DNA of 39,405 nucleotides from Alistipes sp. (GTDB taxonomy: Bacteria; Bacillota; Clostridia; Oscillospirales; Ruminococcaceae): positions 1 to 39,405 of the forward strand of contig JAMPAJ010000007.1 in NCBI GenBank assembly GCA_023667265.1, written 5' to 3'. The stretch's first letter is position 1. Each line of letters opens with the position of its first letter. Below are positions 12,418 to 39,405 of the stretch, one piece after another. The notes beneath the pieces were generated by a model, which was given only the letters and a program-made list of their open reading frames with translations, searched no databases and was not told where the DNA came from. A program made the position numbers and the translations under genes.

Positions 12418-12431
12418 GGAGGAGTTAAGTA

Positions 12432-12872: not shown

Positions 12873-12896
12873 AGCGAATATATGAATTACAAGCAG

Positions 12897-12929: not shown

Positions 12930-12954
12930 CACTTTTCACAGGAGGAATTTTATC

Positions 12955-18717: not shown

Positions 18718-18727
18718 GAGGTGCTGT

Positions 18728-19951: not shown

Positions 19952-19964
19952 GAGGGATTAAGAA

Positions 19965-20288: not shown

Positions 20289-20290
20289 TT

Positions 20291-20707: not shown

Positions 20708-21815
20708 CGAATACAGCTATGAACTTCTGCTGCAAGATGTTCTGGACAATGCTCCTGCCGGAATTGATACAAGACCGGGCAGTATTTTCTATGACGCTGT
20801 TTCAGGCATCCTTATAAAGGTTGCTAAGCTTTACTCGGATTTAGACCTTGTATTTACGCTTACGCAGTTAGATACCGCTTCGGGAGAATATCTTGATATC
20901 AAATCATCTGAATACGGAATTGTAAGGCATGCGGCAACAAAAGCACAGTATTCAGTTATATTTGAGGGCAGCGTGCCTAATGTTGGAGAAAGATTTTTCA
21001 CTAATGGAGAATACTTCACTCTGAAAGAAACAGATGACGGCGTTATGTATTTAGAAGCGGAAACATCAGGCACAGACGGTAACAATATTTACAGCAGTAC
21101 TCCTGCCGTGCCTGTCAACAACATACAAGGCTTAGTGTCTGCTACTTTCGGGACGATCGTTGAATACGGAGCGGATGACGAAACAGATGAAAGTCTGCGA
21201 CAGCGTTTGAGAGAAAAGATAGCCAGTCCTACCGAGAACGGCAACAAGCAGCATTATAAGACATGGTGCGAAAGTTTTGAGGGCGTAGGACGTGCAAGAA
21301 TTATTCCGCTATGGAACGGACCAAACACAGTCAAAGCGATTCTGATAAATCCTCTGGGACTTCCCTGTTCCGATTCCGTCGTTGAAAGCTTGCAAGAATA
21401 CATAGACCCTGCCACGAAAGGATATACCGCCGTTGTGGACGGTAAGACCTATGTAGTGGGCGACGGTCTCGGAGAGGGCATTTCCAATCTCGGAGCTCAT
21501 TTTACAGCCGCCGCCGCAGGAGAAACTCGTATAGATATTTCATTCGATGCCGAGCTGACATCCGGCACTACAGCAGACAGTGCCATAGGTGAAACTACAG
21601 AAGCGGTAAGGAATTACTTTAAGAATCTTGTAATTGGGACAAGCGACACAAACGATATCTTAATCAGACTTTCTGCTATCGGCGCATTGATTTCAGGACT
21701 TCCAACGATTCTCGACTACTCAGAGCTTAAAATCAATGGCGATACTAAGAATATCTATCCCGGAGAAGATAATGTTCCGATAGTTGGCGAGGTGACGATC
21801 AATGTTCTACAATAA
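20700..21815 (+). CDS. xkdT: Baseplate J-like protein XkdT
   Basis: A 371-residue baseplate J family protein. The start is GTG 20700, supported by GAGGAGG ten bases upstream. The N-terminus (YELLLQDVLDNAPAGIDTRPGSIFYDAVSGI) and the core (TDESLRQRLREKIASPTENGNKQHYKTWCESFEGVGRARIIPLWNGPNTVKAILI) are typical of gpJ/gp6-type wedge proteins, which form the ring that drives sheath contraction. Full length, no break. It overlaps xkdU by 14 bases. Confidence 0.93.
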   Translation: MFDEYSYELLLQDVLDNAPAGIDTRPGSIFYDAVSGILIKVAKLYSDLDLVFTLTQLDTASGEYLDIKSSEYGIVRHAATKAQYSVIFEGSVPNVGERFFTNGEYFTLKETDDGVMYLEAETSGTDGNNIYSSTPAVPVNNIQGLVSATFGTIVEYGADDETDESLRQRLREKIASPTENGNKQHYKTWCESFEGVGRARIIPLWNGPNTVKAILINPLGLPCSDSVVESLQEYIDPATKGYTAVVDGKTYVVGDGLGEGISNLGAHFTAAAAGETRIDISFDAELTSGTTADSAIGETTEAVRNYFKNLVIGTSDTNDILIRLSAIGALISGLPTILDYSELKINGDTKNIYPGEDNVPIVGEVTINVLQ

Positions 21816-22377
21816 GTATTTCAAAAACAACTACGAGGAGCTTATAACGTATTATCCGAAGTTTTACAGAGAAGTGCTTGAAATGAAGGCTATCCTTGAA
21901 TCCGAGGGGAAACTTGCTGATGATATGGAGGATAACATTGAACGAGTTTTCAACAACTGCTTTATTGATACAGCAGATGAAAATACTATCGGTAATCTTG
22001 AAAATTTTCTTAGTATTCAGAAACATCTGGATAAAACGTTAGAAGAACGCCGACAGTATGTCAAATCCCATTTTATTGCAGTAGGTAAAATATCAGCAAC
22101 GGCAATTATAAACATGATAAGAACTTATACAGGCAGCAACGCTGAAATTTGCTTTGAACCGTTTGATGAAAATAATAACAACTGTCTTTCAATCGCGCTG
22201 CCTTATCCAAAGGAAGCGTATTATGAAAAAGATATTTACTCGTTATTGACAAAAGTCATTCCTGCGCACATTCGTTTTCAGCTAAGACTAAAAACATCTG
22301 TTTCATCAGGGTTGTATCCAATATGTTCATTGTTTCCACATCACGATATCTATCCTAAAGAAAAGGAGAGCTTATGA
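21802..22377 (+). CDS. xkdU: Baseplate protein XkdU (DUF2313/YmfQ-like)
   Basis: A 191-residue protein. The pattern YYPKFYREVLEMKAILESEGKLADDMEDNIERVFNNCFIDTADENTIGNLENFLSI is the family signature, and RRQYVKSHFIAVGKISATAIINMIRTYTG is the second conserved part. Related proteins (gpI/gp53-like) link the baseplate to the fibres. It overlaps the fibre-like small gene downstream by four bases, so the switch from baseplate to fibre genes occurs here. Confidence 0.88.
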   Translation: MFYNKYFKNNYEELITYYPKFYREVLEMKAILESEGKLADDMEDNIERVFNNCFIDTADENTIGNLENFLSIQKHLDKTLEERRQYVKSHFIAVGKISATAIINMIRTYTGSNAEICFEPFDENNNNCLSIALPYPKEAYYEKDIYSLLTKVIPAHIRFQLRLKTSVSSGLYPICSLFPHHDIYPKEKESL

Positions 22378-22610
22378 AATACAAAAGAATAATGTGGGAA
22401 GAATACCCGTCAGTAAAAACGCCGATAAATGCTTTGAATCTTAATCATATGGATCAGGGAATTTCAGAACTATCAGACTTGATTGACGATATTCAGTCAA
22501 TTACATCATCAGAAATCAACGATGTCATAGGCGACGGATCATCTGCACCAGATATTGATATTAATGCAGAAGAACTGACCTTCGATGATATCGACAGTCT
22601 TTTTTACTAA
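22374..22610 (+). CDS. Small tail-fibre-like protein ending in IDSLF
   Basis: A 78-residue protein (AAAGGAGAG before ATG 22374). YPSVKTPINALNLNHMDQGISELSDLIDDI matches the N-terminal attachment segment seen in Firmicutes phage fibres (TPIN..NLNHM..GI), which normally leads into a coiled coil. Here the protein ends soon after with LTFDDIDSLFY, a C-terminal motif shared with the next fibre gene (ITEAEIDSLFTAA). It may be an adaptor between baseplate and fibre, or a fibre reduced to its two ends. Function inferred only. Confidence 0.7.
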   Translation: MKYKRIMWEEYPSVKTPINALNLNHMDQGISELSDLIDDIQSITSSEINDVIGDGSSAPDIDINAEELTFDDIDSLFY

Positions 22611-22618
22611 AACAACAG

Positions 22619-22646
22619 TTTCCTGTCTTTAAAAATACGTGCCACT
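22619..22646 (+). repeat. 28-bp inverted repeat, left copy
   Basis: The sequence TTTCCTGTCTTT...TGCCACT is the exact reverse complement of 23425-23452. It lies between the small fibre gene and ATG 22663, just before the AGGAGG site (22652-22657). The two copies bracket the whole of the following gene. Confidence 0.95.
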
Positions 22647-22662
22647 GAAACAGGAGGAAATT

Positions 22663-23403
22663 ATGGCTAAATTTTTAACACTTGAAGGTCTTTCACATTT
22701 TCTGACGAAAATCAGAGGTATTTTCGTCGGAGCGGCATCCGATACAACAAAGGGTCACGTTGTTACATTTGGCGATGACGGCAAGACGATCATCGACAGC
22801 GGTTTTACTATCGGTAAGTCCGTACCTGCCAACGCTGATTTCACAGCGCATACGGCATTTACTACAACCACAAGCGGTATCGTTCCCGCACCTACAGCAG
22901 CCAATTCAGGCAAGTTTCTTAAAGGCGACGGCACATGGGGAACTCCTGCAAACACGACCTATACGGCGGCTACGGCTTCAAAGGACGGTCTTATGACATC
23001 TGCTGACTTCACAAAGCTCAGCGGCATTGAGGCTGACGCGGACGTTAATGTTATCGAAAGCATCAAGGTCAACAACACCGCTCTCAGCGTAACAGGAAAG
23101 GCAGTTAACATTGACCTTTCAAGCTATGCGACATCCGCCAGCGTTGAGTCCACTTACGCCAAGAAATCCGATATTACTAATATTTACAAGTACAAGGGTA
23201 CAAAGGCAAGCTATTCGGCTCTCCCTACAAGTGGCAATGCTGTCGGTGACGTGTGGAATATCGAGGGAGCGGATGATGCTCACGGTATCGCCGCCGGAGA
23301 TAATGTAGCCTGGGATGGAACTGCATGGGATAATTTCCGCGGTACTCTTTCAGTTCCGGAGATCACGGAGGCGGAAATCGACTCGCTCTTTACAGCGGCT
23401 TAA
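22663..23403 (+). CDS. Tail fibre protein A (between inverted repeats)
   Basis: A 246-residue protein; ATG 22663 is chosen for AGGAGG at 22652-22657. The N-terminus MAKFLTLEGLSHFLTKIRGIF is a fibre attachment segment that recurs in the next gene (MAKFLDLSGLSYFWGRIKSY). The middle is Thr/Ala/Ser rich and contains KFLKGDGTWGTPANTTYTAA and ASKDGLMTSADFTKLSGIEADADVNVIE, both widely seen in phage fibres. About residues 175-225 form a small domain (YKYKGTKASYSALPTSGNAVGDVWNI) found at fibre tips. It ends with EITEAEIDSLFTAA. It probably helps in host binding. The gene and its ribosome site lie fully inside a perfect 28-bp inverted repeat, so inversion would turn it off. Confidence 0.85.
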   Translation: MAKFLTLEGLSHFLTKIRGIFVGAASDTTKGHVVTFGDDGKTIIDSGFTIGKSVPANADFTAHTAFTTTTSGIVPAPTAANSGKFLKGDGTWGTPANTTYTAATASKDGLMTSADFTKLSGIEADADVNVIESIKVNNTALSVTGKAVNIDLSSYATSASVESTYAKKSDITNIYKYKGTKASYSALPTSGNAVGDVWNIEGADDAHGIAAGDNVAWDGTAWDNFRGTLSVPEITEAEIDSLFTAA

Positions 23404-23424
23404 AACAACAATAAATTAAAATCA

Positions 23425-23452
23425 AGTGGCACGTATTTTTAAAGACAGGAAA
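23425..23452 (+). repeat. 28-bp inverted repeat, right copy
   Basis: AGTGGCACGT...GACAGGAAA matches the reverse complement of 22619-22646 at all 28 positions, and the match stops at both edges. It lies 17 bases before ATG 23470. Confidence 0.95.
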
Positions 23453-23469
23453 AAAGAAAGGAAATTAAA

Positions 23470-25440
23470 ATGGCTAAATTTTTAGATTTGAGCGGATTAA
23501 GTTATTTTTGGGGCAGAATTAAGAGTTATATCTCAGATGCCAAACATGATATTGCCGGAACTATCGCAACAGAAATAGCAAAGGTCGATGTATCAAATTC
23601 ACAGGTTGGCAAGCGTGTTGACGCATTGGAGCAAATTGCTGACCTCAGTGGAAACATTGCTTTTACATATGAAATAGGTGCAATAAATACTTCTACAGGT
23701 GTAAACGCATCTTCGTCAACAAGGATCCGCAGTACAAACTATATTGCAAACAAATATGTTCCCATTAATCTTACGATCAATGGAAATGTAAAAGTCATGG
23801 CGGTTTACTATAGATATGATTACACAGTGTATGGACATTCGGATTGGAGAACTGAAAGTTCAGTCTTTGAAATCGGTAATAATGAAAATGTTGCATTTGC
23901 ACGTATATTTGCTGGTTTTACAGACGATTCGGCAATTATTTCAATTGACGATCTGAAAAATGCCTTTTCATTGCGTTATGCAATAGAATCTCTGAAATAC
24001 AATGGAATTGTTGTTTCGAGCGGAAGAACCTCTTTCGCCGAGTGTAAGGACAATGGGTATTATTCGTTTACACAGGCTTCTCTTGAAGAAATTGACGATA
24101 AGCCTGACGAGTTATCGGACGGCGGTATTCTTACAGTTGAAAATCACGCTGCGACGAATGCTCGTTTTCAGACGATCAAGACTACCAAGGGCGAAACGTA
24201 TTTCAGATACAATAACAACAAATTTATTAGTATCTCATTAAACACCATGAAATACAACGGAAATGTGCTCGATGATGGAAGAACCTCTTTCGCCGAGTGT
24301 AAGGACAATGGGTATTATTCGTTTACACAGGCTTCTCTTGAAGAAATTGACGATAAGCCTGACGAGTTATCGGACGGCGGTATTCTTACAGTTGAAAATC
24401 ACGCTGCGACGAATGCTCGTTTTCAGACGATCAAGACTACCAAGGGCGAAACGTATTTCAGATACAATAACAACAAATTTATTAGTATCTCATTAAACAC
24501 CATGAAATACAACGGAAATGTGCTCGATGATGGAAGAACCTCTTTCGCCGAGTGTAAGGACAATGGGTATTATTCTTACACTTTAGATTCAATTCCGGCA
24601 ATTATTGATGCGCCTATAGGGTTAAATGCAGGAGGAACGCTGACAGTTGAAAATCATGCAGCAGCAAACGTTCGCTTTCAGACCATAACTACATCGGCAG
24701 GCAAGAAATACTTCCGATTTAACAGTAACGAATTTAAAGATATTTCGGCATCTTCGGCAATCGGTTCAGGTGTAAGATGGTATGCTCTGGGAGACAGTAT
24801 AACACAGGGATATTATTCTTATATTTCCGATGAAAGCAGCGAGCCTAAAATAGCCACAACATCAAATTGCTGGGCAAAAAAGGTTGCTTCTGCTAAGAAT
24901 TATACATTTACTAACTACGGCGTAGGCGGATCGGGATATGTTCATAACGGCACAGTTCTCGATAAGCTTAATGCTCGCGCTCACGTTGATACTATTGATT
25001 TCTCAGATGCAGACCTTGTAACGCTTGCATATGGCGTCAATGACTGGAAGTATAACGAACCATTGGGAAAATTTGACGATGATGTGCAGTCGGGCGGAAC
25101 ATTGTACAGCAATATGCGATATGTTATTGAGAAGATCCTCAGTGATAACCCACTATGTAAGATCATCGTTATCACACCGATAAATTGCAGTAGATACGGA
25201 ACCTATGAAGGCAACTGGGGGATCGGTTATCAGTTCTCCAATAATGGAACACTGGAGGATATTTTCAACGCCGAAAAGACTGTAGCCGATTATTACGGTC
25301 TGGAACTGATAGACATGACCCACAATTCATGTGTAAACAGACTTACTGCTCCCCACATTCTTATTGACGGCGTTCATCCGTCGATCGCAGGACATGAAGC
25401 AATGGGAAGAGAAATTTCAGATAAGATAAATTTTTGGTAA
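23470..25440 (+). CDS. Tail fibre B with C-terminal SGNH/GDSL hydrolase
   Basis: A 656-residue protein. Residues 1-20 repeat the MAKFL attachment segment of fibre A. Residues about 185-354 are two identical 85-residue repeats (GRTSFAECKDNGYYSFTQAS ... SLNTMKYNGNVLDD), and a third diverged copy follows (to about 430). The C-terminal 220 residues are an SGNH hydrolase: block I ALGDSITQG (Ser443), block III YGVNDW (Gly522, Asn524) and block V DGVHPS (Asp633, His636). Such domains deacetylate or de-esterify surface sugars, so this is probably the receptor-binding or depolymerising fibre. Ribosome site AAAGAAAGGAAA. The repeat domain likely sets fibre length or valency (inference). Confidence 0.88.
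   Translation: MAKFLDLSGLSYFWGRIKSYISDAKHDIAGTIATEIAKVDVSNSQVGKRVDALEQIADLSGNIAFTYEIGAINTSTGVNASSSTRIRSTNYIANKYVPINLTINGNVKVMAVYYRYDYTVYGHSDWRTESSVFEIGNNENVAFARIFAGFTDDSAIISIDDLKNAFSLRYAIESLKYNGIVVSSGRTSFAECKDNGYYSFTQASLEEIDDKPDELSDGGILTVENHAATNARFQTIKTTKGETYFRYNNNKFISISLNTMKYNGNVLDDGRTSFAECKDNGYYSFTQASLEEIDDKPDELSDGGILTVENHAATNARFQTIKTTKGETYFRYNNNKFISISLNTMKYNGNVLDDGRTSFAECKDNGYYSYTLDSIPAIIDAPIGLNAGGTLTVENHAAANVRFQTITTSAGKKYFRFNSNEFKDISASSAIGSGVRWYALGDSITQGYYSYISDESSEPKIATTSNCWAKKVASAKNYTFTNYGVGGSGYVHNGTVLDKLNARAHVDTIDFSDADLVTLAYGVNDWKYNEPLGKFDDDVQSGGTLYSNMRYVIEKILSDNPLCKIIVITPINCSRYGTYEGNWGIGYQFSNNGTLEDIFNAEKTVADYYGLELIDMTHNSCVNRLTAPHILIDGVHPSIAGHEAMGREISDKINFW
24022..24575 (+). repeat. Perfect 255-bp tandem duplication with partial third copy
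   Basis: 24022-24276 and 24277-24531 are identical by direct comparison, and 24532-24575 repeats the first 44 bases before diverging. The period is 255 bp (85 codons), so the frame is kept. Identity without silent changes suggests a recent or homogenised duplication inside fibre B. Confidence 0.93.
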
Positions 25441-25453
25441 AGGAGAGAGACTA

Positions 25454-25771
25454 ATGAATATTTACGCAGATATCATTGTCAAATTTGCAGGAGTTCTCGG
25501 AGCGGTCGCTGCTATTGTTACAGCAGTTTATGCTGTTGCGAGATGGTTTCAGAAGCAGGAAAAGCAGTCGATAGACATCGAGGAGCTTAGGAAAAAGGAA
25601 GCTGACGACATCCAGTCAATGAAGGATGAGCAGTGTCTTATCAGCTATGCAATGCTTGCCTGCCTTGACGGATTGAAACAGCTCAACTGCAATGGAGCTG
25701 TCACAGAAGCGCACAACAAACTACAGAAACATCTTAACAAGAGAGCGCACTCGTCACACTCAGATGAGTAG
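25454..25771 (+). CDS. Membrane protein of the lysis cassette (holin-like)
   Basis: A 105-residue protein with one N-terminal hydrophobic segment (about residues 8-30, IVKFAGVLGAVAAIVTAVYAVARW) followed by a charged cytoplasmic part (QKQEKQSIDIEELRKKEADD). This type is common just before holin and endolysin genes in Clostridia phages. It may be a second holin, antiholin or regulator. AAGGAGAG precedes ATG 25454. Confidence 0.7.
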   Translation: MNIYADIIVKFAGVLGAVAAIVTAVYAVARWFQKQEKQSIDIEELRKKEADDIQSMKDEQCLISYAMLACLDGLKQLNCNGAVTEAHNKLQKHLNKRAHSSHSDE

Positions 25772-25791
25772 CCGATAGGAGGTGTTGCATC

Positions 25792-25983
25792 ATGAAGATC
25801 AGGGACAAGCTTGCAAAATTGATTGATGTGAAATCGCTTGTAACGCTGATTTTAACGGTTGTTTTCGCCGTTCAGACAGTGAAAGGTATAATTACATCAG
25901 ATCAGTTCCAAACCATATTCACAACCGTTATAGCGTTCTATTTCGGCACGCAGTTTAACAAAAATTCAAAGGAGGATAAATAA
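25792..25983 (+). CDS. Holin
   Basis: A 63-residue protein with a short basic N-terminus (MKIRDKLAKLID), two hydrophobic segments (SLVTLILTVVFAVQTVKGI and FQTIFTTVIAFYFGTQF) and a charged tail (NKNSKEDK). Size, topology and position directly before the endolysin fit a small class II holin. AGGAGGTG precedes ATG 25792, and the endolysin start is two bases beyond its stop. Confidence 0.8.
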   Translation: MKIRDKLAKLIDVKSLVTLILTVVFAVQTVKGIITSDQFQTIFTTVIAFYFGTQFNKNSKEDK

Positions 25984-25985
25984 CT

Positions 25986-26549
25986 ATGAGTACATACAAG
26001 TATAACGACAAGACACAGCTTACGCCACACTTCAATGTCAGTGAGTTTCGCTGCAAATGCGGTGGAGCACATGATACACAGCTTGATACAGCTCTTGTGG
26101 ATAAGCTTGAAAAGCTCTACATAGCTTTGAACTGTTCAAAAATCATTGTCAACAGCGGTTATCGTTGTTCAGCGCATGACAGAAATGTAGGTGGCAGCGG
26201 CTACGGTCAGCACGTTAACGGCACTGCGGCAGACATAGTCTGCTATGACCAGTCGGGCAAGAAAATTTCCTCGAAAATCGTGTGCTGTGCAGCTCAGGAT
26301 ATCGGCTTTACTGGAATTGCTAACATCGACAGCAGCTACACTGCAACTCATGTTGATGTCCGCGTTTCCGGTAAATGGTTCGGCGATGAAACTGTTACTA
26401 CTGCTTATAGCGTTTGTTCGGATTTTTATGGGTATTTTGGATTGAGCAAGACTGATGTTTACGGTGTTACTGCTCAGGTGAAGAAAACTAAGAATTTCAC
26501 ACTTACTGTCGATGGCGTGACTTATGAGGGGACGCTGACCGAGAAATGA
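25986..26549 (+). CDS. Endolysin, peptidase M15 (D-Ala-D-Ala carboxypeptidase-like)
   Basis: A 187-residue protein. HFNVSEFRCKCGG is the typical start of M15A peptidases. Zinc ligands are His76 (YGQHVNGTAADI), Asp83 and His122 (THVDVR), with IIVNSGYRCSAHDRNVGG between. The C-terminal 40 residues (VYGVTAQVKKTKNFTLTVDGVTYEGTL) are a short beta tail that may bind the wall. It cleaves peptide cross-links of peptidoglycan at lysis. No signal peptide, so release needs the holin. It is the last gene of the late operon, followed by a strong terminator. Confidence 0.9.
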   Translation: MSTYKYNDKTQLTPHFNVSEFRCKCGGAHDTQLDTALVDKLEKLYIALNCSKIIVNSGYRCSAHDRNVGGSGYGQHVNGTAADIVCYDQSGKKISSKIVCCAAQDIGFTGIANIDSSYTATHVDVRVSGKWFGDETVTTAYSVCSDFYGYFGLSKTDVYGVTAQVKKTKNFTLTVDGVTYEGTLTEK

Positions 26550-26558
26550 TAATACATC

Positions 26559-26593
26559 AAAACCTCCCGTTCGTTTTCAACGGGAGGTTTTTT
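26559..26593 (+). terminator. Strong terminator ending the late operon
   Basis: AAAACCTCCCGTT (26559-26571) pairs perfectly with AACGGGAGGTTTT (26579-26591), a 13-bp stem with a seven-base loop and six Ts at 26588-26593. Confidence 0.93.
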
Positions 26594-26604
26594 ACGTGGT
26601 ACAA

Positions 26605-26628
26605 GTGTCGTAGTAGGTGTCGTAGTAG
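26605..26628 (+). repeat. Tandem 12-bp repeats, probable integrase arm sites
   Basis: GTGTCGTAGTAG occurs twice in direct succession (26605-26616 and 26617-26628). It lies about 55 bases from the tRNA-like core. Tandem direct repeats flanking a tRNA-derived core are typical arm-type binding sites of tyrosine integrases. Confidence 0.6.
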
Positions 26629-26641
26629 AGGTTTTTACACG

Positions 26642-26675
26642 AAAAAAGCCATTTGTAAGAATCCTTACAAATGGC
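26642..26675 (-). terminator. Terminator of the tRNA-Ser fragment
   Basis: On the minus strand GCCATTTGTAAG and CTTACAAATGGC form a perfect 12-bp stem with a four-base loop, then six Ts (plus-strand A run 26642-26647). It follows the CCA end by about six bases. It looks like the natural terminator of the host tRNA gene carried along in attP. Confidence 0.8.
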
Positions 26676-26681
26676 TATATA

Positions 26682-26741
26682 TGGCGGACAGGGAGGGATT
26701 CGAACCCTCGATACGCTATTAACGTATACACGAGTTTCAAG
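26682..26741 (-). other. attP core: 3' part of a tRNA-Ser(UGA) gene
   Basis: Read on the minus strand, 26741-26682 gives anticodon loop CTTGAAA (anticodon TGA), the 3' anticodon stem CTCGT, a variable arm (ATACG/CGTAT), a T arm (GAGGG TTCGAAT CCCTC), the 3' acceptor strand CCTGTCC, discriminator G and encoded CCA. The 5' half of a tRNA is missing: upstream bases TTGAC do not pair with CTCGT. So it is not a functional tRNA. A block of identity from the anticodon loop to the 3' end is the classic core of phages that integrate into tRNA genes and restore the gene on integration. Confidence 0.85.
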
Positions 26742-26800
26742 GTCAATTACAGTATAGTCAGCAAAAAAAACATCTGAATAATCTTTCATATTATCTCTCC

Positions 26801-27232
26801 TCAATAGCTCTGCTTTTGCATTTCATTAATTTTCAAAATAATTTCCGCTCTTTGCACAATAGACAGATTCCGTATCATATTCACAAGTTCGAGCGTATCT
26901 TTATCAATTGCGGCTGTATTTACATTAACAGTGCTGTTATCACTGTTGACGTTGCTTTGATTTATTGAAGTGCATGAATTTAATTCAGGTGCATCGGTAC
27001 GCCCGAGAAGGTAATCAACAGAGCAGGCAAGTTGTTCTGAAATATCAAAAAGTATTTTAGCACTTAACCCCATTTTGCTATTAGCCGATGTTGCTATTGT
27101 ATTTTTATTTAAATTACAAGTTTCGTTCAATTCTGACAAGGAAATATTACTTGCCAAACGTATACTTTTAATTCTGTCAACAGTGGTTTGTGGATTATAA
27201 ATAAAAATACCTCCCAAAGATTGTGCAAACAC
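26801..27232 (-). CDS. XRE-type repressor
   Basis: About 143 residues; the only clear minus-strand gene. The N-terminal HTH (TTVDRIKSIRLASNISLSELNETCNLNKNTIATSANSKMGLSAKILFDISEQLACSVDYLLGRTD) is a standard lambda-repressor-like domain. The C-terminal half (Asn/Ser/Thr linker, then DTLELVNMIRNLSIVQRAEIILKINEM) looks like a dimerisation helix; no peptidase S24 domain, so SOS self-cleavage is not expected. The start is uncertain: GTG 27232 is the longest, but GGGAGG at 27215-27210 points to a start near an ATT codon at 27202. It is transcribed from the leftward promoter at 27361-27389 and likely controls the rightward one. Confidence 0.85.
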   Translation of the reverse strand: MFAQSLGGIFIYNPQTTVDRIKSIRLASNISLSELNETCNLNKNTIATSANSKMGLSAKILFDISEQLACSVDYLLGRTDAPELNSCTSINQSNVNSDNSTVNVNTAAIDKDTLELVNMIRNLSIVQRAEIILKINEMQKQSY

Positions 27233-27240
27233 ACAATTTC

Positions 27241-27282
27241 CTAAAATATTGTGGAATTAACTTGACAATTCTAAAATTTTAG
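27241..27282 (+). promoter_or_regulatory. Candidate repressor operators (CTAAAAT motifs)
   Basis: CTAAAATATT occurs at 27241-27250, the perfect palindrome CTAAAATTTTAG at 27271-27282 inside the spacer of the rightward promoter, and another CTAAAAT at 27378-27384 inside the spacer of the leftward promoter. The shared half-site and its places suit binding by the XRE repressor or Cro-like protein. Confidence 0.6.
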
Positions 27283-27290
27283 GTTATAAT
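27262..27290 (+). promoter_or_regulatory. Rightward early promoter (PR-like)
   Basis: TTGACA at 27262-27267, a 17-base spacer and TATAAT at 27285-27290 are a full consensus sigma-A promoter. The start point would be near 27297. It drives the Cro-like gene and the early region. Confidence 0.93.
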
Positions 27291-27360
27291 ATAGACAAGC
27301 TATTACAAAAGGCACAAAATTCACGAAACATTATTGCAATTTACTTGTCTTTGCACTTCA

Positions 27361-27389
27361 AGTATAGCATATTTTGTCTAAAATGTCAA
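27361..27389 (-). promoter_or_regulatory. Leftward repressor promoter (PRM/PL-like)
   Basis: On the minus strand TTGACA (27389-27384), a 17-base spacer and TATACT (27366-27361) give a near-perfect sigma-A promoter with a start near 27354. It points toward the rightward promoter, so the two transcripts overlap by about 57 bases. Confidence 0.9.
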
Positions 27390-27423
27390 TAGCTAAGATA
27401 TAAATTTTTGTAGAGGTGATATA

Positions 27424-27630
27424 ATGTCATTTGCAGAAAACGTAAAAAAACTCAGAACAGAAAAAGGGCTTACGCAGGCGGAACTTGCAAATCTTATAGG
27501 AATTGCACAGCCTACATTAGCCCAGTACGAAAAAGGTTTAAAGCTTCCGACTATCCTTACAGGCGTAACCCTTGCCCAGAAGCTTGGTACAACCTGCGAG
27601 ATGCTTGTGTGCGACCAGAAAGGAGCATAA
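27424..27630 (+). CDS. Cro-like XRE regulator
   Basis: A 68-residue protein made only of an HTH_XRE domain: FAENVKKLRTEKGLTQAELANLIGIAQPTLAQYEKGLKLPTILTGVTLAQKLGTTCEMLV. The recognition helix is around residues 27-38. It is the first gene of the rightward early operon (AGAGGTGAT before ATG 27424), opposite the repressor, the place of cro. It probably binds the operators in 27241-27384 to favour lytic growth (inference). Confidence 0.88.
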   Translation: MSFAENVKKLRTEKGLTQAELANLIGIAQPTLAQYEKGLKLPTILTGVTLAQKLGTTCEMLVCDQKGA

Positions 27631-27633
27631 ACA

Positions 27634-27894
27634 ATGACTGCACTGGAAAAAATCACAGAATATCTCAGCAAGGACACCGAACGACTGGCTGAGATCATCG
27701 AAAAGCATCCCCAGCAGATACCAGTCCCAGTAATAGCGGAGTGGTGGGGATGCGATGAAAACAGCCTCAGAGACGCACTACAGCAGCAAGGGCTTCTGGG
27801 AATCGCCCAGCGTAAACCAGGGAAACTCAACAGAGGCTTTGTTGTTCCCACCGGGCACTTAGTCCGCTGGTATATGTGCAAATGGGGATTGTGA
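27634..27894 (+). CDS. Small early protein, possible DNA-binding
   Basis: An 86-residue protein (AAAGGAGC before ATG 27634). The part VIAEWWGCDENSLRDALQQQGLLGIAQRKPGKLNRGFVVPTGHLVRWY looks like a winged-helix or excisionase-like HTH with a basic wing. I do not recognise the family with certainty. Position directly after cro suggests a regulatory role. Confidence 0.6.
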   Translation: MTALEKITEYLSKDTERLAEIIEKHPQQIPVPVIAEWWGCDENSLRDALQQQGLLGIAQRKPGKLNRGFVVPTGHLVRWYMCKWGL

Positions 27895-27911
27895 AAAAGG
27901 AGGTAAACCAA

Positions 27912-28064
27912 ATGAAACACTACCGCATAACCCTAAAAAACCGCAAAGGCGAGCCGCTGTACATAACGGTCACGGCGAGCAGCCTGTACGAAGCGATGAA
28001 GAGGGTCGATTTTTCATCCAACTGGCATTTTGCGGACTACAGCGTGATAGGAGGAATAAAATGA
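27912..28064 (+). CDS. Small early protein, unknown
   Basis: A 50-residue protein; ATG 27912 is chosen for AAAGGAGG at 27896-27903. MKHYRITLKNRKGEPLYITVTASSLYEAMKRVDFSSNW suggests two strands and a helix. It overlaps the next gene by four bases. Function unknown. Confidence 0.6.
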   Translation: MKHYRITLKNRKGEPLYITVTASSLYEAMKRVDFSSNWHFADYSVIGGIK

Positions 28065-28306
28065 AGACGTGCAAATATTGCGGGATCGACCTGCGCGAAC
28101 CTGGAGCACACCGGCAATACTGCCCGGAATGTCTTGTGATCCGACGTGAGGAAACAGACCGTGTAAGACGCAGAAAAGAGCTGCTGCGGCGCGTACTTGG
28201 CAATATGCAGCCTCTCCACCGGGATATCAGGGCTGCGGACGCCAGAAAAATGACCTACGGCAGGTACATGGCATGGAAACAGGAGCAGGAGGCGCGGCAA
28301 AGATGA
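28061..28306 (+). CDS. Small zinc-finger protein
   Basis: An 81-residue protein with an N-terminal zinc knuckle (CKYCGIDLREPGAHRQYCPEC) and a very basic helical remainder (RREETDRVRRRKELLRRVLG). The combination suits a small DNA- or RNA-binding protein. AGGAGG precedes ATG 28061, and the stop overlaps ATG 28303. Confidence 0.65.
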   Translation: MKTCKYCGIDLREPGAHRQYCPECLVIRREETDRVRRRKELLRRVLGNMQPLHRDIRAADARKMTYGRYMAWKQEQEARQR

Positions 28307-28584
28307 TACAGAGAGTGATACTTCCCGGCGATATATCGACGCTTCTGGCGATTCTCGGCGTGATCGCAGTCGTGGTGTACATAGTGACCTCGGTTGCCAG
28401 GATAAGAGAAGTTCCCCGGGAGAGGGCGGACAACAGCTTTCAGCGAGCTGTAGGGAAAAACAGGACTTCTCCCATGCTCGCGGAATTTTACAAGGCTGCT
28501 GCCGAGGGCGACCCAGATGACCGCGATTACTGGGCAGAAACGGCTGAGATGTTTTCCGGAGGTGACGAAAATGACTGCAAATGA
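28303..28584 (+). CDS. Small single-pass membrane protein
   Basis: A 93-residue protein. ATG 28303 is preferred because it overlaps the previous stop (ATGA); an in-frame ATG at 28273 would add ten residues. One hydrophobic segment (STLLAILGVIAVVVYIVTSVA, about residues 10-31) is followed by a polar cytoplasmic domain (SPMLAEFYKAAAEGDPDDRDYWAETAEMF). Its role is unknown; an early membrane protein could act in exclusion, but nothing shows it here. Confidence 0.6.
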   Translation: MIQRVILPGDISTLLAILGVIAVVVYIVTSVARIREVPRERADNSFQRAVGKNRTSPMLAEFYKAAAEGDPDDRDYWAETAEMFSGGDENDCK

Positions 28585-28732
28585 GCAGCGAAAGGTATTC
28601 AAGATATGTCAGATACTGGGCGTTCTGGAGCGATGCTTCGGCACAATAGCCGTGCCGATGAGCCTACTTCTCGACCGGGTGTCTGACGAATGGGTCGATT
28701 TTTACTACGCTAAGCTGGTGGACAGGCTGTGA
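28571..28732 (+). CDS. Small early protein, unknown
   Basis: A 53-residue protein from ATG 28571 with GGAGGTGAC directly upstream. EQRKVFKICQILGVLERCFGTIAVPMSLLLDRVSDEWVDFYYAKLVDRL is mostly helical with a central hydrophobic stretch. It overlaps the preceding gene by 14 bases. Function unknown. Confidence 0.6.
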   Translation: MTANEQRKVFKICQILGVLERCFGTIAVPMSLLLDRVSDEWVDFYYAKLVDRL

Positions 28733-28738
28733 GGTGAG

Positions 28739-28807
28739 ATGAAAAATGACGATTTCAGATATTTTCGCTCGCAGCATATCTGCGTCCGCAAAAAAATAAC
28801 CGTCTGA
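28739..28807 (+). CDS. Possible 22-residue peptide
   Basis: GAGGTG precedes ATG 28739, which encodes MKNDDFRYFRSQHICVRKKITV. The stop lies in the stem of the reverse-oriented hairpin at 28800-28822. Too short to be sure that it is a gene. Confidence 0.3.
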   Translation: MKNDDFRYFRSQHICVRKKITV

Positions 28808-28822
28808 AAACAACTCAGACGG
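28791..28822 (-). terminator. Intrinsic terminator facing left
   Basis: CCGTCTGA (28800-28807) pairs with TCAGACGG (28815-28822). The A-rich run 28791-28796 lies on the left, so on the minus strand the stem is followed by TTATTTTTT. On the plus strand no T run follows. It would stop leftward, not rightward, transcription. Confidence 0.6.
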
Positions 28823-28845
28823 AAGAAAGAAAAAAATACTTACCA

Positions 28846-28860
28846 CTGCTATTATAGCAG
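28846..28860 (+). promoter_or_regulatory. 15-bp palindrome before the radical SAM gene
   Basis: CTGCTAT-T-ATAGCAG is a perfect inverted repeat ending 22 bases before the TTG start at 28883. It contains TATTAT, a -10-like element. It may be an operator or promoter for the gene. Confidence 0.35.
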
Positions 28861-28882
28861 ATATGAAAGGAAAAGTCAAGTT

Positions 28883-29794
28883 TTGAAAATTGGATTGTGG
28901 TCGGACAGTCACAACTTTCCGAGTTTACCGCTGATGAAGCTATCTGCATATCATAAGTCGATAGGCGATGAAGTTGAACTATTCGACCGATGGAACTGCT
29001 ATGATCTGGTGTATGCTTCAAAAGTGTTCAGTTTTACAGACGATATCGACACTTATCCTGTTCAGGCTGACGAAATCCGGAAAGGCGGTACGGGCTACTG
29101 TATCAGTGTACAAAATGGGCGAGAGGTGTTCGATAGTTCAAATAATACGGCTCTTCTAAAGGATATAGAGCATATTTATCCGGATTACAGTTTGTATCCT
29201 CAATACAACTATGCGACCGGATTTCTCACGCGAGGATGTCCCAGAAATTGCGGATTCTGCGTAGTCGGTAAGAAAGAGGGACTACGCTCATGTCAGGTGG
29301 CTGACTTGTCGGAATTTTGGAGAGGACAAAAGGAAATTAAGCTGCTTGATCCGAATATACTTGCCTGCAAAGATCATGAAAAACTGTTGATACAGCTTGG
29401 GGAAAGCGGCTCAAGGATTGATTTTACACAGGGACTCGATATTCGTCTTGTCAATCCTGATAATATAGCTTTACTTAATGCGATAAGATCACCTATATTG
29501 CATTTTGCGTGGGACAATCCTACGCAAGATCTAACAAAATATTTTAAGTTGTTTTCGGAACACTCAACTATAAAATCATATCGCAATAAAATTGTCTATG
29601 TACTGACAAATTTCAATAGCACGATTGACGAAGATCTATACAGGATTTATACACTTCGCGAATTAGGGTATAGTCCGTATGTTATGATTTATCAGAAAGA
29701 AAACGCACCGCAAGAAATTAAACGATTGCAAAGGTGGGTCAATTGTCGCTGGATTTTTAGAAGTGTTGATAAATTTGAAGATTACAAAGGATAA
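28883..29794 (+). CDS. Radical SAM protein of phages
   Basis: A 303-residue protein starting at TTG 28883 (AAAGGA upstream; an ATG at 28863 is in another frame and stops at once). The 4Fe-4S motif CPRNCGFC (Cys119, Cys123, Cys126) shows a radical SAM enzyme that splits S-adenosylmethionine to start radical chemistry. The N-terminus (MKIGLWSDSHNFPSLPLMKLSAYHKSIGDEVELFD) is a B12-binding-like Rossmann domain lacking an obvious cobalamin His motif. This two-domain family is frequent in Firmicutes phages, with no known substrate. It lies between a leftward terminator and its own palindrome, so it may be an independently controlled cargo (moron) gene. Confidence 0.85.
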   Translation: MKIGLWSDSHNFPSLPLMKLSAYHKSIGDEVELFDRWNCYDLVYASKVFSFTDDIDTYPVQADEIRKGGTGYCISVQNGREVFDSSNNTALLKDIEHIYPDYSLYPQYNYATGFLTRGCPRNCGFCVVGKKEGLRSCQVADLSEFWRGQKEIKLLDPNILACKDHEKLLIQLGESGSRIDFTQGLDIRLVNPDNIALLNAIRSPILHFAWDNPTQDLTKYFKLFSEHSTIKSYRNKIVYVLTNFNSTIDEDLYRIYTLRELGYSPYVMIYQKENAPQEIKRLQRWVNCRWIFRSVDKFEDYKG

Positions 29795-29806
29795 GAGGAG
29801 AAGTCA

Positions 29807-30085
29807 ATGACTATCAAAGAAAAAATAATGAGAATAATGGAACTGGCACTGGAGATAGACCCTCCGGAAATGAAGTGCATCGGAGAAGAAAGAACCGCCG
29901 TTTTCGTTGACTGGTCGCCGCATTGTAATAGTCTGTGTGTCTCTGTTCATTTCGGCGGCTGGCGTCCCGGGAGAAAACCGGACGAGAGATTTGACATATA
30001 TACCTATCGCCAGGGCGACGAACTTGACATGATAATCGCTGAGCTGGAACGGATCAGGGCAGAGCTGCCGGGAGGCGGAATATGA
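29807..30085 (+). CDS. Unknown small protein upstream of the methyltransferase
   Basis: A 92-residue protein (GAGGAG before ATG 29807). An N-terminal helix (TIKEKIMRIMELALEI) is followed by a beta-rich part (TAVFVDWSPHCNSLCVSVHFGGW) and a C-terminal helix (LDMIIAELERIRAELPGG). Its stop overlaps the methyltransferase start by four bases. No family recognised. Confidence 0.65.
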   Translation: MTIKEKIMRIMELALEIDPPEMKCIGEERTAVFVDWSPHCNSLCVSVHFGGWRPGRKPDERFDIYTYRQGDELDMIIAELERIRAELPGGGI

Positions 30086-30786
30086 AAGTCCTGGTAGCCT
30101 GCGAGGAATCCCAGAGAGTCTGCACGGCGTTCCGTGAGCTCGGGCATGAAGCCTACAGCTGCGATATACAGGAGTGCTCCGGCGGTCATCCTGAATGGCA
30201 TATACAGGGAGATGCACTGCCGTACATAAACGGAAACTGTACCTTTACCACGCTGGACGGCACACGCCATAATATTGACGGCAGCTGGGACTTGCTTATC
30301 GCGCATCCGCCGTGCACGTATTTGTCAAGTGTTACAACAAGGCATCTCAGCCTGAGAGTTACCCCGGCTGAAAAAGTTGTTGCCAGAATGTGGAAGGTTG
30401 CTGAAAGTGCAGTATTCTTCATGCAGATAGCGTGTGCTGACTGTGAACGGATCGCAATTGAAAATCCTACAGGATATATGTCAAGGCTGTGGAGAAAGCC
30501 CGATCAGATTATACATCCTTACTTCTTTGCAAAAGACAAAAAGGACATAGCGAATTATCAGAAAAAAAGAACCAGTTTATGGCTAAAGGGCTTGAAGCCA
30601 TTACAGCGGACGTCAAGTTTAGAACCACCTGAACCCTATGGCTATACGAAAACGGGTAAACCTATAAATTTTGAAGAAGCGCACGGAAAAATCAAAGGGT
30701 TAGATTGTGACATAAACTCTGCGAAAGCAAGAAGCAAAACCTTCCCCGGCATAGCAAGGGCTATGGCGGAGCAATGGGGAAAATAA
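30082..30786 (+). CDS. Compact DNA cytosine methyltransferase-like protein
   Basis: A 234-residue protein. VLVACEESQRVCTAFRELGHEAYSCDI is the SAM-binding Rossmann start (motif I region). AHPPCTYLS (Pro76-Pro77-Cys78) matches the catalytic PPC of C5 methyltransferases, IENPTG (about 126-131) corresponds to motif VI ENV, and YQKKRTSLWLKGLKPL resembles motif VIII. The C-terminal SKTFPGIARAMAEQW is the usual end. There is no room for a normal target-recognition domain, so specificity is unclear. Such short forms are widespread in phages and may protect DNA from host restriction. No restriction gene is nearby. Confidence 0.78.
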   Translation: MKVLVACEESQRVCTAFRELGHEAYSCDIQECSGGHPEWHIQGDALPYINGNCTFTTLDGTRHNIDGSWDLLIAHPPCTYLSSVTTRHLSLRVTPAEKVVARMWKVAESAVFFMQIACADCERIAIENPTGYMSRLWRKPDQIIHPYFFAKDKKDIANYQKKRTSLWLKGLKPLQRTSSLEPPEPYGYTKTGKPINFEEAHGKIKGLDCDINSAKARSKTFPGIARAMAEQWGK

Positions 30787-30798
30787 AGGAGGACTAAG

Positions 30799-30969
30799 AT
30801 GATCGACTATGAAAAAGCACAGCACATTTTGTATGTTTTACCACGCAAAAATCTTTCAAGGGCAGTAGTACTTTTACAGCCCGAAACTGTAATTGAAAAG
30901 TGTAGAAGTTCAAAGGAGCTGGATTTCTACTACAACAAATTATGCAAAGGAAGGTCTGAAAAATGGTAA
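30799..30969 (+). CDS. Small protein between methyltransferase and ATPase
   Basis: A 56-residue protein: AAGGAGG precedes ATG 30799, and the sequence MIDYEKAQHILYVLPRKNLS to the end KGRSEKW is open to TAA 30967-30969. It overlaps the ATPase start by seven bases, and the ATPase ribosome site (AAAGGAAGG) lies in its codons. Helical, unknown function. Confidence 0.6.
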   Translation: MIDYEKAQHILYVLPRKNLSRAVVLLQPETVIEKCRSSKELDFYYNKLCKGRSEKW

Positions 30970-32249
30970 CGATCAGCAGTCTCGAATTCGAGAACGTAAA
31001 GAGGATAAAAGCGGTAAAGCTTGAACCGTCGCCTACAGGATTGACGGTGATCGGCGGACGCAACAATCAGGGTAAGACAAGCGTTATTGACGCTCTTGCA
31101 TGGGCGGTAGGCGGAGATAAATATAAGCCGTCACAGGCGCAGAGAGACGGTTCTGTAATTCCGCCGTCGCTGCACGTTGAGCTTTCAAACGGAATTATAG
31201 TTGAGCGCAAAGGCAAAAACAGCAGCCTTAAAGTTATCGATCCGAGCGGCAAACGCGGAGGGCAGCAGTTGCTTAACAGTTTCATTGAAGCTTTTGCGCT
31301 TGACCTTCCGAAATTTATAAACTCTACAGCCAAAGAAAAGGCTGATATCTTGCTTAAGATCATAGGTGTCGGAGATAAGCTTCATGAACTTGAACAGGAA
31401 GAATCCCAGTTGTACAACCGCCGCCATGCTATCGGGCAGATCGCCGATCAGAAAGCGAAATTTGCAAAAGAGATGACTGCATATCCGAATGTTCCCGATG
31501 AAATAATTTCGGCATCCGAGCTTATCCGCCAACAGCAGGAAATTCTTGCCCGTAACGGTGAGAATCAGCGAAAACGGCAGCTTAAAGAACAATATGACCG
31601 TGAACTTGAAGAAGCGAGACAGGCTCTTGACGAAGCCAAGAGGCGCTTTGCTCAGGCTCAGTCAAACGCCAAGACTGCGGCAAAATCGGCAGAAAATCTC
31701 ATAGACGAATCGACTGCAGAGCTTGAAAAAAATATTTCAGATATTGAAACTCTGAACGCGAAAATAAGAGCAAATCTCGACCGTGAGAAAGCCGAGGAGG
31801 AAGCGAAAGGCTACAGCAACCAGTATGCGGCTTTGACGGAAGAACTTGAAGCTGTACGAAAGGAAAAGTATGATCTGCTCAACAATTCCGATCTGCCTCT
31901 GACAGGACTTTCTGTTGCTGACGGTGAGCTTACATACAAGGGGCAGAAATGGGATAATATGAGCGGTTCAGAACAGCTCAGAGTATCAGCGGCAATAGTC
32001 CGCAGGCTCAATCCCGAATGCGGATTTGTGCTTCTGGACAAGCTTGAACAAATGGACAGTGACACTCTCAGAGAGTTCGGAGAATGGCTTGAATCAGAGG
32101 GCTTGCAGGCTATAGCGACAAGAGTTTCAAACGGAGACGAATGCTCAGTGATTATCGAGGACGGATATGTTGTCACATCGGCTGAACTGCCAATAGAAAG
32201 CAAAAGCTTTCATCCTGAAAAGAAAAATTGGGAAAATGTTGATTGGTAA
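30963..32249 (+). CDS. SMC/RecF-like AAA ATPase
   Basis: A 428-residue protein. Walker A is GGRNNQGKTS (about residues 31-40). A coiled coil spans about 130-305 (LEQEESQLYNRRHAIGQIAD ... AELEKNISDIETLNAKIRAN), followed by the ABC signature MSGSEQLRVSAAIVRRL and a Walker B-like FVLLDKLEQMD. In the last motif Lys stands where SMC proteins have Glu; I believe this is usual in this phage family. It is encoded next to Sak4-like and DUF669 genes, so it probably acts in phage recombination or replication, like an SbcC/RecF partner without the nuclease. Confidence 0.82.
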   Translation: MVTISSLEFENVKRIKAVKLEPSPTGLTVIGGRNNQGKTSVIDALAWAVGGDKYKPSQAQRDGSVIPPSLHVELSNGIIVERKGKNSSLKVIDPSGKRGGQQLLNSFIEAFALDLPKFINSTAKEKADILLKIIGVGDKLHELEQEESQLYNRRHAIGQIADQKAKFAKEMTAYPNVPDEIISASELIRQQQEILARNGENQRKRQLKEQYDRELEEARQALDEAKRRFAQAQSNAKTAAKSAENLIDESTAELEKNISDIETLNAKIRANLDREKAEEEAKGYSNQYAALTEELEAVRKEKYDLLNNSDLPLTGLSVADGELTYKGQKWDNMSGSEQLRVSAAIVRRLNPECGFVLLDKLEQMDSDTLREFGEWLESEGLQAIATRVSNGDECSVIIEDGYVVTSAELPIESKSFHPEKKNWENVDW

Positions 32250-32358
32250 TTCATGAATGTAAATTTTTTGTAAAATTTTTGCAATAATCAATGGTTTTAC
32301 GTTGAATGAGGGCTCATTTCAGACTATTTATGGAAGAAGTTATAAGGAGGTATTCCAT

Positions 32359-33405: not shown

Positions 33406-33425
33406 TTTATAGGAGGATTTTTATT

Positions 33426-35494: not shown

Positions 35495-35507
35495 CAAGGA
35501 GAAATAA

Positions 35508-37875: not shown

Positions 37876-37916
37876 TATTACGAAATAATAATTGCGCGCG
37901 AGGAGGTGCAGCGAAA

Positions 37917-38506: not shown

Positions 38507-38516
38507 GAGGACTAAT

Positions 38517-38924
38517 ATGAACCGTGAGATTTTATTCAGAGGCAAGAAAGTTATCAACGGCGAATGGGTCGAGGGCGATCTGTTTCAGCATGGCGAACAG
38601 CGTTTTATTATGGGAAACAATCGCAATACTGAGGTTATCCCCGAAACCGTCGGACAGTACACAGGGAAAGAGTTAGACGGTGAAAAACTTTTTACCGGTG
38701 ACATCGTGGAAACTTGTGAGGATTATGATGATATTTTCGGATATCCCACAACAAGTGTATTCAATTCTGTTGTAATATGGGACGATAAAAACTTTTGTTA
38801 CGCTTTGAAAACAGGAGATTTTATACAGCCATTCAACGACTGGAATTGGGATAACTGCCGTCTTATTGATAATATCCATGATAATCCGGAGCTGATAGGA
38901 GGAGAAGAAAATGAAAAAGTTTGA
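38517..38924 (+). CDS. YopX family protein
   Basis: A 135-residue protein; ATG 38517 is chosen for AGGAGG at 38505-38510. NREILFRGKKVINGEWVEGDLFQHGE, VIPETVGQYTGKELDGEKLFTGDIVE and VVIWDDKNFCYAL are the YopX signatures. These proteins are common near the end of early operons in Gram-positive phages; their function is unknown. It overlaps the next ATG by 14 bases. Confidence 0.92.
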   Translation: MNREILFRGKKVINGEWVEGDLFQHGEQRFIMGNNRNTEVIPETVGQYTGKELDGEKLFTGDIVETCEDYDDIFGYPTTSVFNSVVIWDDKNFCYALKTGDFIQPFNDWNWDNCRLIDNIHDNPELIGGEENEKV

Positions 38925-39405
38925 ATTGACAACTGATACTAAAATGTTTTTAGGAAGAAAGCTGTTTCGCATCAAGGCTTTGGTTAGCTTTGGAGATGTA
39001 GAAGCTGGGGAGTTAGGCGGATACGTTGAAAAAGAAGATAATTTGTCGCATGACGGCAATGCTTGGGTCTACGGCAATGCTTGGGTCTACGGCGATGCTC
39101 TGGTCAGCGGCAATGCTCGGGTCAGCGGCAATGCTTGGGTCTACGGCGATGCTCTGGTCAGCGGCAATGCTCGGGTCAGCGGCAATGCTCGGGTCAGCGG
39201 CAATGCTCTGGTCAGCGGCAATGCTTTGGTCTACGGCAATGCTGAGGTCAGCGGCAATGCTGAGGTCAGCGGCAATGCTCTGGTCAGCGGCAATGCTCTG
39301 GTCTACGGCAATGCTCTGGTCTACGGCAATGCTGAGGTCAGCGGCAATGCTGAGGTCAGCGGCAATGCTCTGGTCAGCGGCAATGCTCTGGTCTACGGCA
39401 ATGCT
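38911..39405 (+). CDS. NAxVxG hexapeptide-repeat protein, N-terminal part (continues at 1-280)
   Basis: ATG 38911 follows GGAGGAG. The N-terminal 50 residues (MKKFELTTDTKMFLGRKLFR ... GELGGYVEKEDNLSHDG) are a capping domain. From 39058, 19 hexads of the form N/D-A-x-V-S/Y-G run to the window edge, with Trp, Leu, Arg or Glu at x. The frame is open at 39405 and continues at base 2, so the whole protein has about 239 residues. The hexad pattern suits a parallel beta-helix. Repeat number can change in steps of six residues without frame loss. Role unknown. Confidence 0.88.
   Translation, partial: MKKFELTTDTKMFLGRKLFRIKALVSFGDVEAGELGGYVEKEDNLSHDGNAWVYGNAWVYGDALVSGNARVSGNAWVYGDALVSGNARVSGNARVSGNALVSGNALVYGNAEVSGNAEVSGNALVSGNALVYGNALVYGNAEVSGNAEVSGNALVSGNALVYGNA
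39058..39405 (+). repeat. 18-bp coding tandem repeats with a 90-bp higher-order period
   Basis: The 18-bp unit GGCAATGCTNNGGTCNNC recurs in tandem to the window edge and on to about base 53 on the left. Blocks of five units repeat: the same 55-mer occurs at 39261-39315 and 39351-39405, a shift of exactly 90 bp. Copy number is likely to vary and may be misassembled. Confidence 0.93.
39351..39405. repeat. Terminal overlap, right copy (identical to 1-55)
   Basis: Exact match to bases 1-55. Removing one copy leaves a 39,350-bp circle with an uninterrupted reading frame over the join. Confidence 0.9.

What the first reader, a model, noticed from the sequence alone, without database searches (positions are those of the whole stretch)
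26605..27232. tRNA-Ser attP with arm repeats and repressor, but no integrase in the window
A 60-base 3' part of tRNA-Ser(UGA), its terminator and two tandem 12-bp arm-like repeats form a convincing attP. Temperate phages normally have int between attP and the repressor; here only about 60 bases lie there. I recognise no tyrosine or serine recombinase in any frame of the apparently complete circle. Either the phage descends from a temperate one that lost int, or it uses an integrase supplied in trans, or it persists as a plasmid-like element.
Basis: partly seen in the sequence, partly recalled or inferred. Interest (0 to 1): 0.85.

Follow-up and report, generated by a model that had tools for sequence, protein, structure and literature searches.

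The report
Phage attachment-site scar lacking its integrase
A phage of Ruminococcus-type bacteria appears to have lost its integrase gene and half of its chromosome attachment site in one clean deletion, and a piece matching what is missing was found, starting at exactly that breakpoint, in another bacterium of the same genus; losing an integrase this way is a basically known kind of event.

Summary
The observation mostly holds, with two corrections. The block at 26682-26736 is the 3' part of tRNA-Ser(GGA), not UGA, and only the right half of an attP is present: core plus P' arm. In seven of seven related loci whose integrase side could be read, a tyrosine integrase and a second set of the same repeats lie left of the core; the window has neither. 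Six of six other core left sides of the tRNA-Ser(GGA) type carry the tRNA's 7-nt anticodon loop CTGGAAC; the window has TTGAAAC. So it is a half-site, not a working attP.

The cause is a deletion. Window 26734-26787 is the start of an exonuclease-like gene fused to the tRNA core. A contig of a congener (G002:C78 = JAMPAU010000069.1, Ruminococcus flavefaciens MAG) starts with the same 54 bp, diverges exactly at the window's junction, and carries regulators, a 368-aa integrase, P arm and core: 5,599 bp absent from the window. The break lies at the border of the anticodon loop, where such integrases cross over, so an integrase-made deletion is my preferred, unproven mechanism. 'Integrase in trans' is unlikely. 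Whether the circle is free phage or prophage cannot be settled without reads.

The parts
26682..26736 (-). 55-bp core identical to the 3' part of host tRNA-Ser(GGA): last bases of the anticodon loop to CCA
   Evidence: 54 bp of it begin contig C26 of the same genome; C22 carries the 5' half of the tRNA gene
26647..26676 (.). Near-perfect inverted repeat followed by a T run on the - strand: terminator-like hairpin
   Evidence: Sequence; 93% self-match in inverted orientation
26605..26626 (-). Right (P') arm: two ACTACGACAC repeats, 12-bp period
   Evidence: same distance from the core (80 and 92 bases from the T-loop anchor) in L202, L204 and L262
26733..26734 (.). Deletion junction: exonuclease-like gene fused to tRNA core
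   Evidence: contig G002:C78 identical for 54 bp up to 26734, then diverges
26734..26789 (-). Truncated start of a DnaQ/RNase_T-like exonuclease gene (MKDYSDVFFADYTVIDLE...)
   Evidence: 26734-26787 identical to G002:C78:1-54, where it continues ...TTGLSAKSCEIIELAA; resembles genus proteins of which L251:8118-8684 matches PF00929; no profile hit on the fragment itself
26592..26789 (-). Chimeric 65-aa ORF: exonuclease start read on through tRNA core, hairpin and arms
26801..27232 (-). Repressor-like helix-turn-helix protein, 143 aa
   Evidence: PHROGs phrog_8 transcriptional regulator E 8e-11; Pfam HTH_3 below cut-off
27424..27630 (+). Divergent Cro/CI-like regulator, 68 aa
   Evidence: phrog_8, E 4e-13
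25986..26549 (+). Endolysin-like peptidase beside the P' arm; relatives sit beside the same arm in G018, G096 and G083
   Evidence: phrog_894 endolysin; G096 70% and G083 77% identity; G018 by eye
38911..39405 (+). Tandem-repeat gene that continues in frame across the contig ends (39405 to 56-280)

Best explanation
The window is the circularised genome of a contractile-tailed phage, probably of Ruminococcus, that descends from a temperate phage integrating at tRNA-Ser(GGA). A deletion of about 5.6 kb joined the start of an exonuclease-like gene (after ...GACCTTGAAAC) to the tRNA core (TCGTG...), removing the exonuclease remainder, two more helix-turn-helix regulators, small ORFs, the tyrosine integrase and the integrase-side (P) arm (shown by comparison with C78; that C78 was joined to a window-like body is inferred). 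What is left is core plus P' arm, an attL-like half-site that should not integrate by itself. Because the break lies exactly at the border of the 7-nt anticodon loop, the expected crossover region of the integrase, the deletion was probably made by the phage's own integrase recombining the core with a poor look-alike site (TTGAAAC for CTGGAAC) in the exonuclease gene (inferred). The repressor remains, so the phage may still show immunity but cannot lysogenise normally (inferred).
For: Integrase plus P arm left of the core in 7 of 7 loci of this kind whose integrase side could be read (L248, L202, L204, L262, G143, G073, G096; L204 holds only the integrase C-terminus), and neither in the window. 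I dropped L106 from that count because its left side belongs to another element. G002:C78 begins with 54 bp identical to the window, diverges exactly at the junction, and contains integrase (PF00589, E 2e-31), P arm and core. The contig break there suggests that a second continuation, as in the window, was also in the reads of G002. The exonuclease motif (IDLETTG...EIIEL) is continuous in C78 and in homologues of the genus, so C78 is the older arrangement. The 7-nt loop is CTGGAAC in 6 of 6 other core left sides (one of them, L106, of another integrase type) and TTGAAAC only in the window. Crossover sites in tRNA genes fall into subsites of which the anticodon loop is one (PMC4383910, two passages read).
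Against: The look-alike site matches the loop at only 5 of 7 positions, and overlap mismatches normally hinder tyrosine integrases (recalled); an illegitimate join over the 3-bp AAC homology is possible. No near-identical body of the phage was found in G002 (only window 20001-39405 and one protein were searched there), so C78 and a window-like body are linked by 54 bp plus the core. Two further genomes, G061 and G090, have the right arm pair (one mismatch) without a tRNA and without an integrase of this clade in the 40 kb and 10 kb read, so the family rule is not shown for every arm-bearing locus. No reads were available.
Confidence: 0.78

Rival explanations
1. Same deletion, but made by illegitimate (microhomology) recombination rather than by the integrase.
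For: AAC is shared at the joint; simple deletions are common in phage lysogeny regions (recalled).
Against: The right end falls at the border of a 7-nt crossover region although any end in the ~1.25 kb from int start to core (C78 4393-5653) would also have removed or cut int; the same joint is implied in a second genome, though common descent would also explain that.
Confidence: 0.35
2. The deletion happened in an integrated prophage, which is now locked in at tRNA-Ser(GGA) and only partly excises.
For: Contigs C22 and C26 of the same genome both break inside the tRNA-Ser(GGA) core, as expected if core junctions are mixed.
Against: The window contig reads through the core from exonuclease to P' arm as a circle would; a purely integrated form should not give that join.
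Confidence: 0.3
3. The integrase is supplied in trans by another element of the host.
For: The genome has other tyrosine integrases (13 PF00589 matches).
Against: No close homologue of this clade in the genome (best-scoring hit 30%); the arm pair, one mismatch allowed, occurs nowhere else in the genome; P arm missing and overlap mismatched.
Confidence: 0.05
4. Assembly artefact: the joint does not exist in DNA.
For: Draft k=55 assembly; the core equals the k-mer length.
Against: Exonuclease and core share only 3 bp at the joint, far below k; the assembly of another genome breaks at exactly the same base.
Confidence: 0.07
5. The element persists as a phage-plasmid.
For: Circular contig with primase and helicase genes.
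Against: No partition or plasmid-initiator family among the 50 ORFs scanned.
Confidence: 0.07

Closest known systems
Temperate phages and islands with tyrosine integrase at tRNA genes, anticodon-loop subsite (Islander site A, PMC4383910, passages read)
   Same: tRNA 3' fragment as core, arm repeats, terminator, integrase normally beside the core; the seven relatives fit
   Different: Integrase, P arm and matching crossover loop are gone in the window
Prophages and viral contigs found here with the same arms: G143 (tRNA-Ser GGA), G073 and G096 (tRNA-Ala GGC), L202, L204, L262
   Same: Same core type or its Ala version; same right-arm spacing (79-80 and 91-92) where the right side was read
   Different: They keep integrase (60-91% identity within the Ser group) and P arm
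Virulent phages with defective integration elements, e.g. Lactobacillus phage LL-H against temperate mv4, and Streptococcus thermophilus phage Sfi21 deletion mutants (recalled; the listings of searches did not show the original papers)
   Same: Attachment-site remnant in a phage that lost the integrase by deletion
   Different: Here the breakpoint sits at the expected integrase crossover point and a matching deleted piece is known from a congener

Membership tests
Temperate phage with functional tRNA attP | tRNA-derived core identical to the host tRNA across the crossover region | tested here: not met
   Core identical for 55 bp but loop TTGAAAC versus CTGGAAC
Temperate phage with functional tRNA attP | Arm sites on both sides of the core | tested here: not met
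   Right pair only; 7 of 7 readable relatives have the left set
Temperate phage with functional tRNA attP | Site-specific integrase gene | tested here: not met
   six-frame; 50 ORFs
Temperate phage with functional tRNA attP | Repressor gene | tested here: met
   26801-27232; activity not testable
Integrase-less derivative of a temperate phage | Att remnant plus relatives with int at the same place | tested here: met
Integrase-less derivative of a temperate phage | Deletion ends defined against an int-bearing sibling | tested here: inconclusive
   C78 gives both ends, 5,599 bp absent from window, but its linkage to a window-like body is inferred
Integrase-less derivative of a temperate phage | Cannot lysogenise, grows lytically | not testable with these tools
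   Needs a host and plaques
Phage-plasmid | Partition or plasmid replication initiator genes | tested here: not met
   None among 50 ORFs; four of the 54 translated ORFs not scanned

The most novel reading that the evidence does not exclude
Integrase shedding as a recurrent reaction: the phage's own integrase uses a second site inside its lysogeny region, so that induction can release an int-less circle while the integrase cassette stays behind. The same joint, seen in one genome and implied by contig ends in a second, would then be a repeated product rather than one old deletion.
Probability: 0.1. Interest if true: 0.7.

Novelty: new member of a known kind. Interest (0 to 1): 0.4.

Why it matters
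It shows a likely temperate-to-nonlysogenic conversion at base resolution in a phage known only from sequence, with both the scar and a matching missing piece in hand, and suggests that the integrase itself may cut out its own gene. It also warns that a tRNA fragment with arm repeats is not proof of a working attP.

Tried and rejected
Rejected: tRNA-Ser(UGA) as target. Integrase of tyrosine or serine type on the contig (PHROGs scans). A close clade integrase elsewhere in the genome.

Led nowhere: repressor as a viral-contig query (9 stretches matched a pattern, none encoded a relative); early-region relatives through the AAA gene showed an integrase in some loci but a motif scan found no exonuclease start in the loci then held; relatives of the radical-SAM gene share little else with the window; exact exonuclease-end pattern in viral contigs (0 hits). 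The thiamine-type gene of C26 was not found beside tRNA-Ser in the relatives (0 of 22 loci, several of which hold little downstream DNA), so C26 as host flank rests on 89% identity of its first 94-98 bases with G021 and G029 and on terminators like those behind tRNA-Ser in other relatives. The phage-collection search gave only two Acinetobacter phage records, over a tRNA. The listings of paper searches showed no report of this phage or junction; of the papers listed I read passages of one (PMC4383910).

Rows dropped from counts: L106 (other element on its left), L203 (arm pattern inside a coding repeat of an unrelated contig), G018 and G083 (contigs end before the integrase side), G061 and G090 (arms without tRNA; no clade integrase in what was read).

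Full report
What the window is. The window is contig C43 (39,405 bp) of a 2.57-Mb draft bacterial genome in 45 contigs. Its ends share 55 nt, like other contig overlaps of this assembly, and one tandem-repeat gene reads in frame across the joint. Genes match terminase, portal, tail sheath, tape measure, baseplate, endolysin, primase, helicase and RusA families: a complete-looking contractile-tailed phage. The host genus is inferred from a congener's record title (Ruminococcus flavefaciens MAG).

The tRNA block. On the - strand, 26682-26736 equals the last 55 bases of tRNA-Ser(GGA). Of 22 relatives' loci scanned, 20 hold the intact gene, each GGA and each beside tRNA-Leu(GAG); L079 and L080 gave none. 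In the window's own genome C22 carries tRNA-Leu(GAG) and the 5' half of tRNA-Ser(GGA), then a run of N (100 by my count), and C26 begins with 54 bp of the core followed by non-phage sequence. The UGA gene is elsewhere. Both chromosomal contigs thus break inside the core, which fits several core junctions being present, but coverage is unknown and I draw no firm conclusion on integration.

No integrase. Six-frame Pfam searches put 13 PF00589 and 15 PF00239 matches in the genome, none on C43. Fifty of the 54 ORFs translated, compared with PHROGs, gave none. Transposase-type recombinases were not searched in six frames.

What a complete site looks like. The arm pattern ACTACGACACNNACTACGACAC was found in 3 viral-contig stretches (one, L203, is a coding repeat in an unrelated contig) and, with one mismatch allowed, in 8 of 125 genomes of the genus, the window's own included, where it occurs once. 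Of these 13 loci five hold an intact tRNA-Ser(GGA), tRNA-Ala(GGC) or tRNA-Pro(GGG) beside the arms. L262 and L248 came in later by other queries. Where the integrase side can be read, a tyrosine integrase (365-378 aa where I measured it) and a second set of arm repeats lie left of the core: 7 of 7 (L248, L202, L204, L262, G143, G073, G096; L204 shows only the integrase C-terminus). In the Ser group the left repeats stand about 150-163 bases from the T-loop anchor (L204 has a third at 174), and the right ones, where read (L202, L204, L262), 80 and 92; in G096 it is 137/148 and 79/91; the window has 80 and 92 on the right and nothing on the left. G143 and G073 are integrated prophages with tRNA plus P' arm at one end and integrase, P arm and core about 35 kb away. 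Not fitting or not readable: G018 and G083 end before the integrase side; G061 and G090 have the right arm pair without a tRNA and no clade integrase in the 40 kb and 10 kb read.

The missing piece. The 21-aa start of the ORF between repressor and core was sought in 125 genomes at E up to 10: besides the window itself, G002:C78 matched at E 1.2e-7 and four genomes at E 0.34-1.15. C78 is 5,695 bp and identical to JAMPAU010000069.1, a Ruminococcus flavefaciens MAG contig. Its first 54 bp equal window 26787-26734; the next base differs (A against T), and C78 goes on as an RNase_T-type motif (IDLETTGLSAKSCEIIELAA) before that gene too decays; then come HTH, DUF4160, DUF2442, HTH, a 321-aa ORF without a Pfam hit, a 368-aa Phage_integrase protein (E 2e-31), the P arm, and the ...GCACGACTGGAACTCGTG core. 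C78 ends after exactly 55 bases shared with the tRNA gene, and G002:C16 begins with 54 bases equal to window 26733-26680. So C78 spans from the window's breakpoint to the core: 5,599 bp absent from the window. A contig that stops 54 bases before a divergence point suggests a fork, so the window's joint was probably in the G002 reads too. No near-identical phage body was found in that genome: none for the AAA protein, and against window 20001-39405 eight matches, the longest 68% over about 600 bp near the endolysin; window 1-20000 was not searched there. Over 125 genomes only the window's own matched the 108 bp around the joint in full among the matches listed (that list is cut at its weak end).

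Direction of change. The exonuclease motif is uninterrupted in C78 and in homologues of the genus, so the window is the derived, deleted form.

Mechanism. The anticodon stem-loop CACGA-CTGGAAC-TCGTG has the form of two inverted half-sites around a 7-nt overlap. The six other core left sides examined have CTGGAAC while their further left flanks differ (one, L106, belongs to another integrase type), and the Ala-type G073 core identity starts at the equivalent loop (by eye). Crossovers in tRNA genes fall into subsites, one at the anticodon loop (PMC4383910, two passages read). The window's joint is TTGAAAC|TCGTG, exactly at the right border of that loop. This favours the integrase as maker of the deletion, with the weakness that the exonuclease site matches the loop at 5 of 7 bases and that AAC microhomology exists. 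I give about 0.5-0.6 to the integrase as maker and 0.35 to illegitimate joining.

Consequence. With no integrase, one arm missing and a mismatched overlap, the site resembles attL rather than attP and should not integrate even with helper integrase (inference from the known behaviour of such systems). The retained repressor may still give immunity. The likeliest life style is lytic growth, or a prophage fixed in place; reads would decide.

Novelty. Loss of integrase by deletion is a known route from temperate to virulent phages (recalled examples LL-H and Sfi21; the listings of searches did not show the originals). What is unusual is the breakpoint at the expected crossover position and the recovery of a matching deleted piece.

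Noticed in passing
G031:C3 (L107) and G031:C43 (L106); G143:C1 near 409-455 kb: tRNA-Ser(GGA) looks like an integration hotspot in the genus: at least two integrase types, apparently in tandem arrays (arms TTGCTAAT against ACTACGACAC).
   Followed up: partly
window 38911-39405 and 1-280: Gene with many GNALVYGNA/VSGNA-type tandem repeats in which the contig breaks; a similar protein lies among early genes of L236.
   Followed up: partly
window 23470-25440: Tail-fibre-like protein with near-identical internal repeats of about 80 aa (by eye) and a C-terminal part matching an esterase/lipase family.
   Followed up: no
window 28883-29794: Radical-SAM protein (phrog_9298); 76-80% identical in four viral contigs of otherwise different gene order, two more distant hits.
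   Followed up: partly
G096:C76 (29,192 bp): Contig that starts and ends in the same P' arm region and holds a complete attP of tRNA-Ala type: probably a free circular or tandem phage form beside an occupied tRNA-Ala site (C42).
   Followed up: partly
G061:C5:41227 and G090:C75:416: Right arm pair without a tRNA and without a clade integrase in the 40 kb and 10 kb read: possibly further remnants that lost integration functions.
   Followed up: no
G000:C22:184312-184411: Run of 100 N inside tRNA-Ser(GGA), followed within about 1 kb by a large serine recombinase gene; the scaffold join may be wrong because C26 also carries the tRNA's 3' part.
   Followed up: partly
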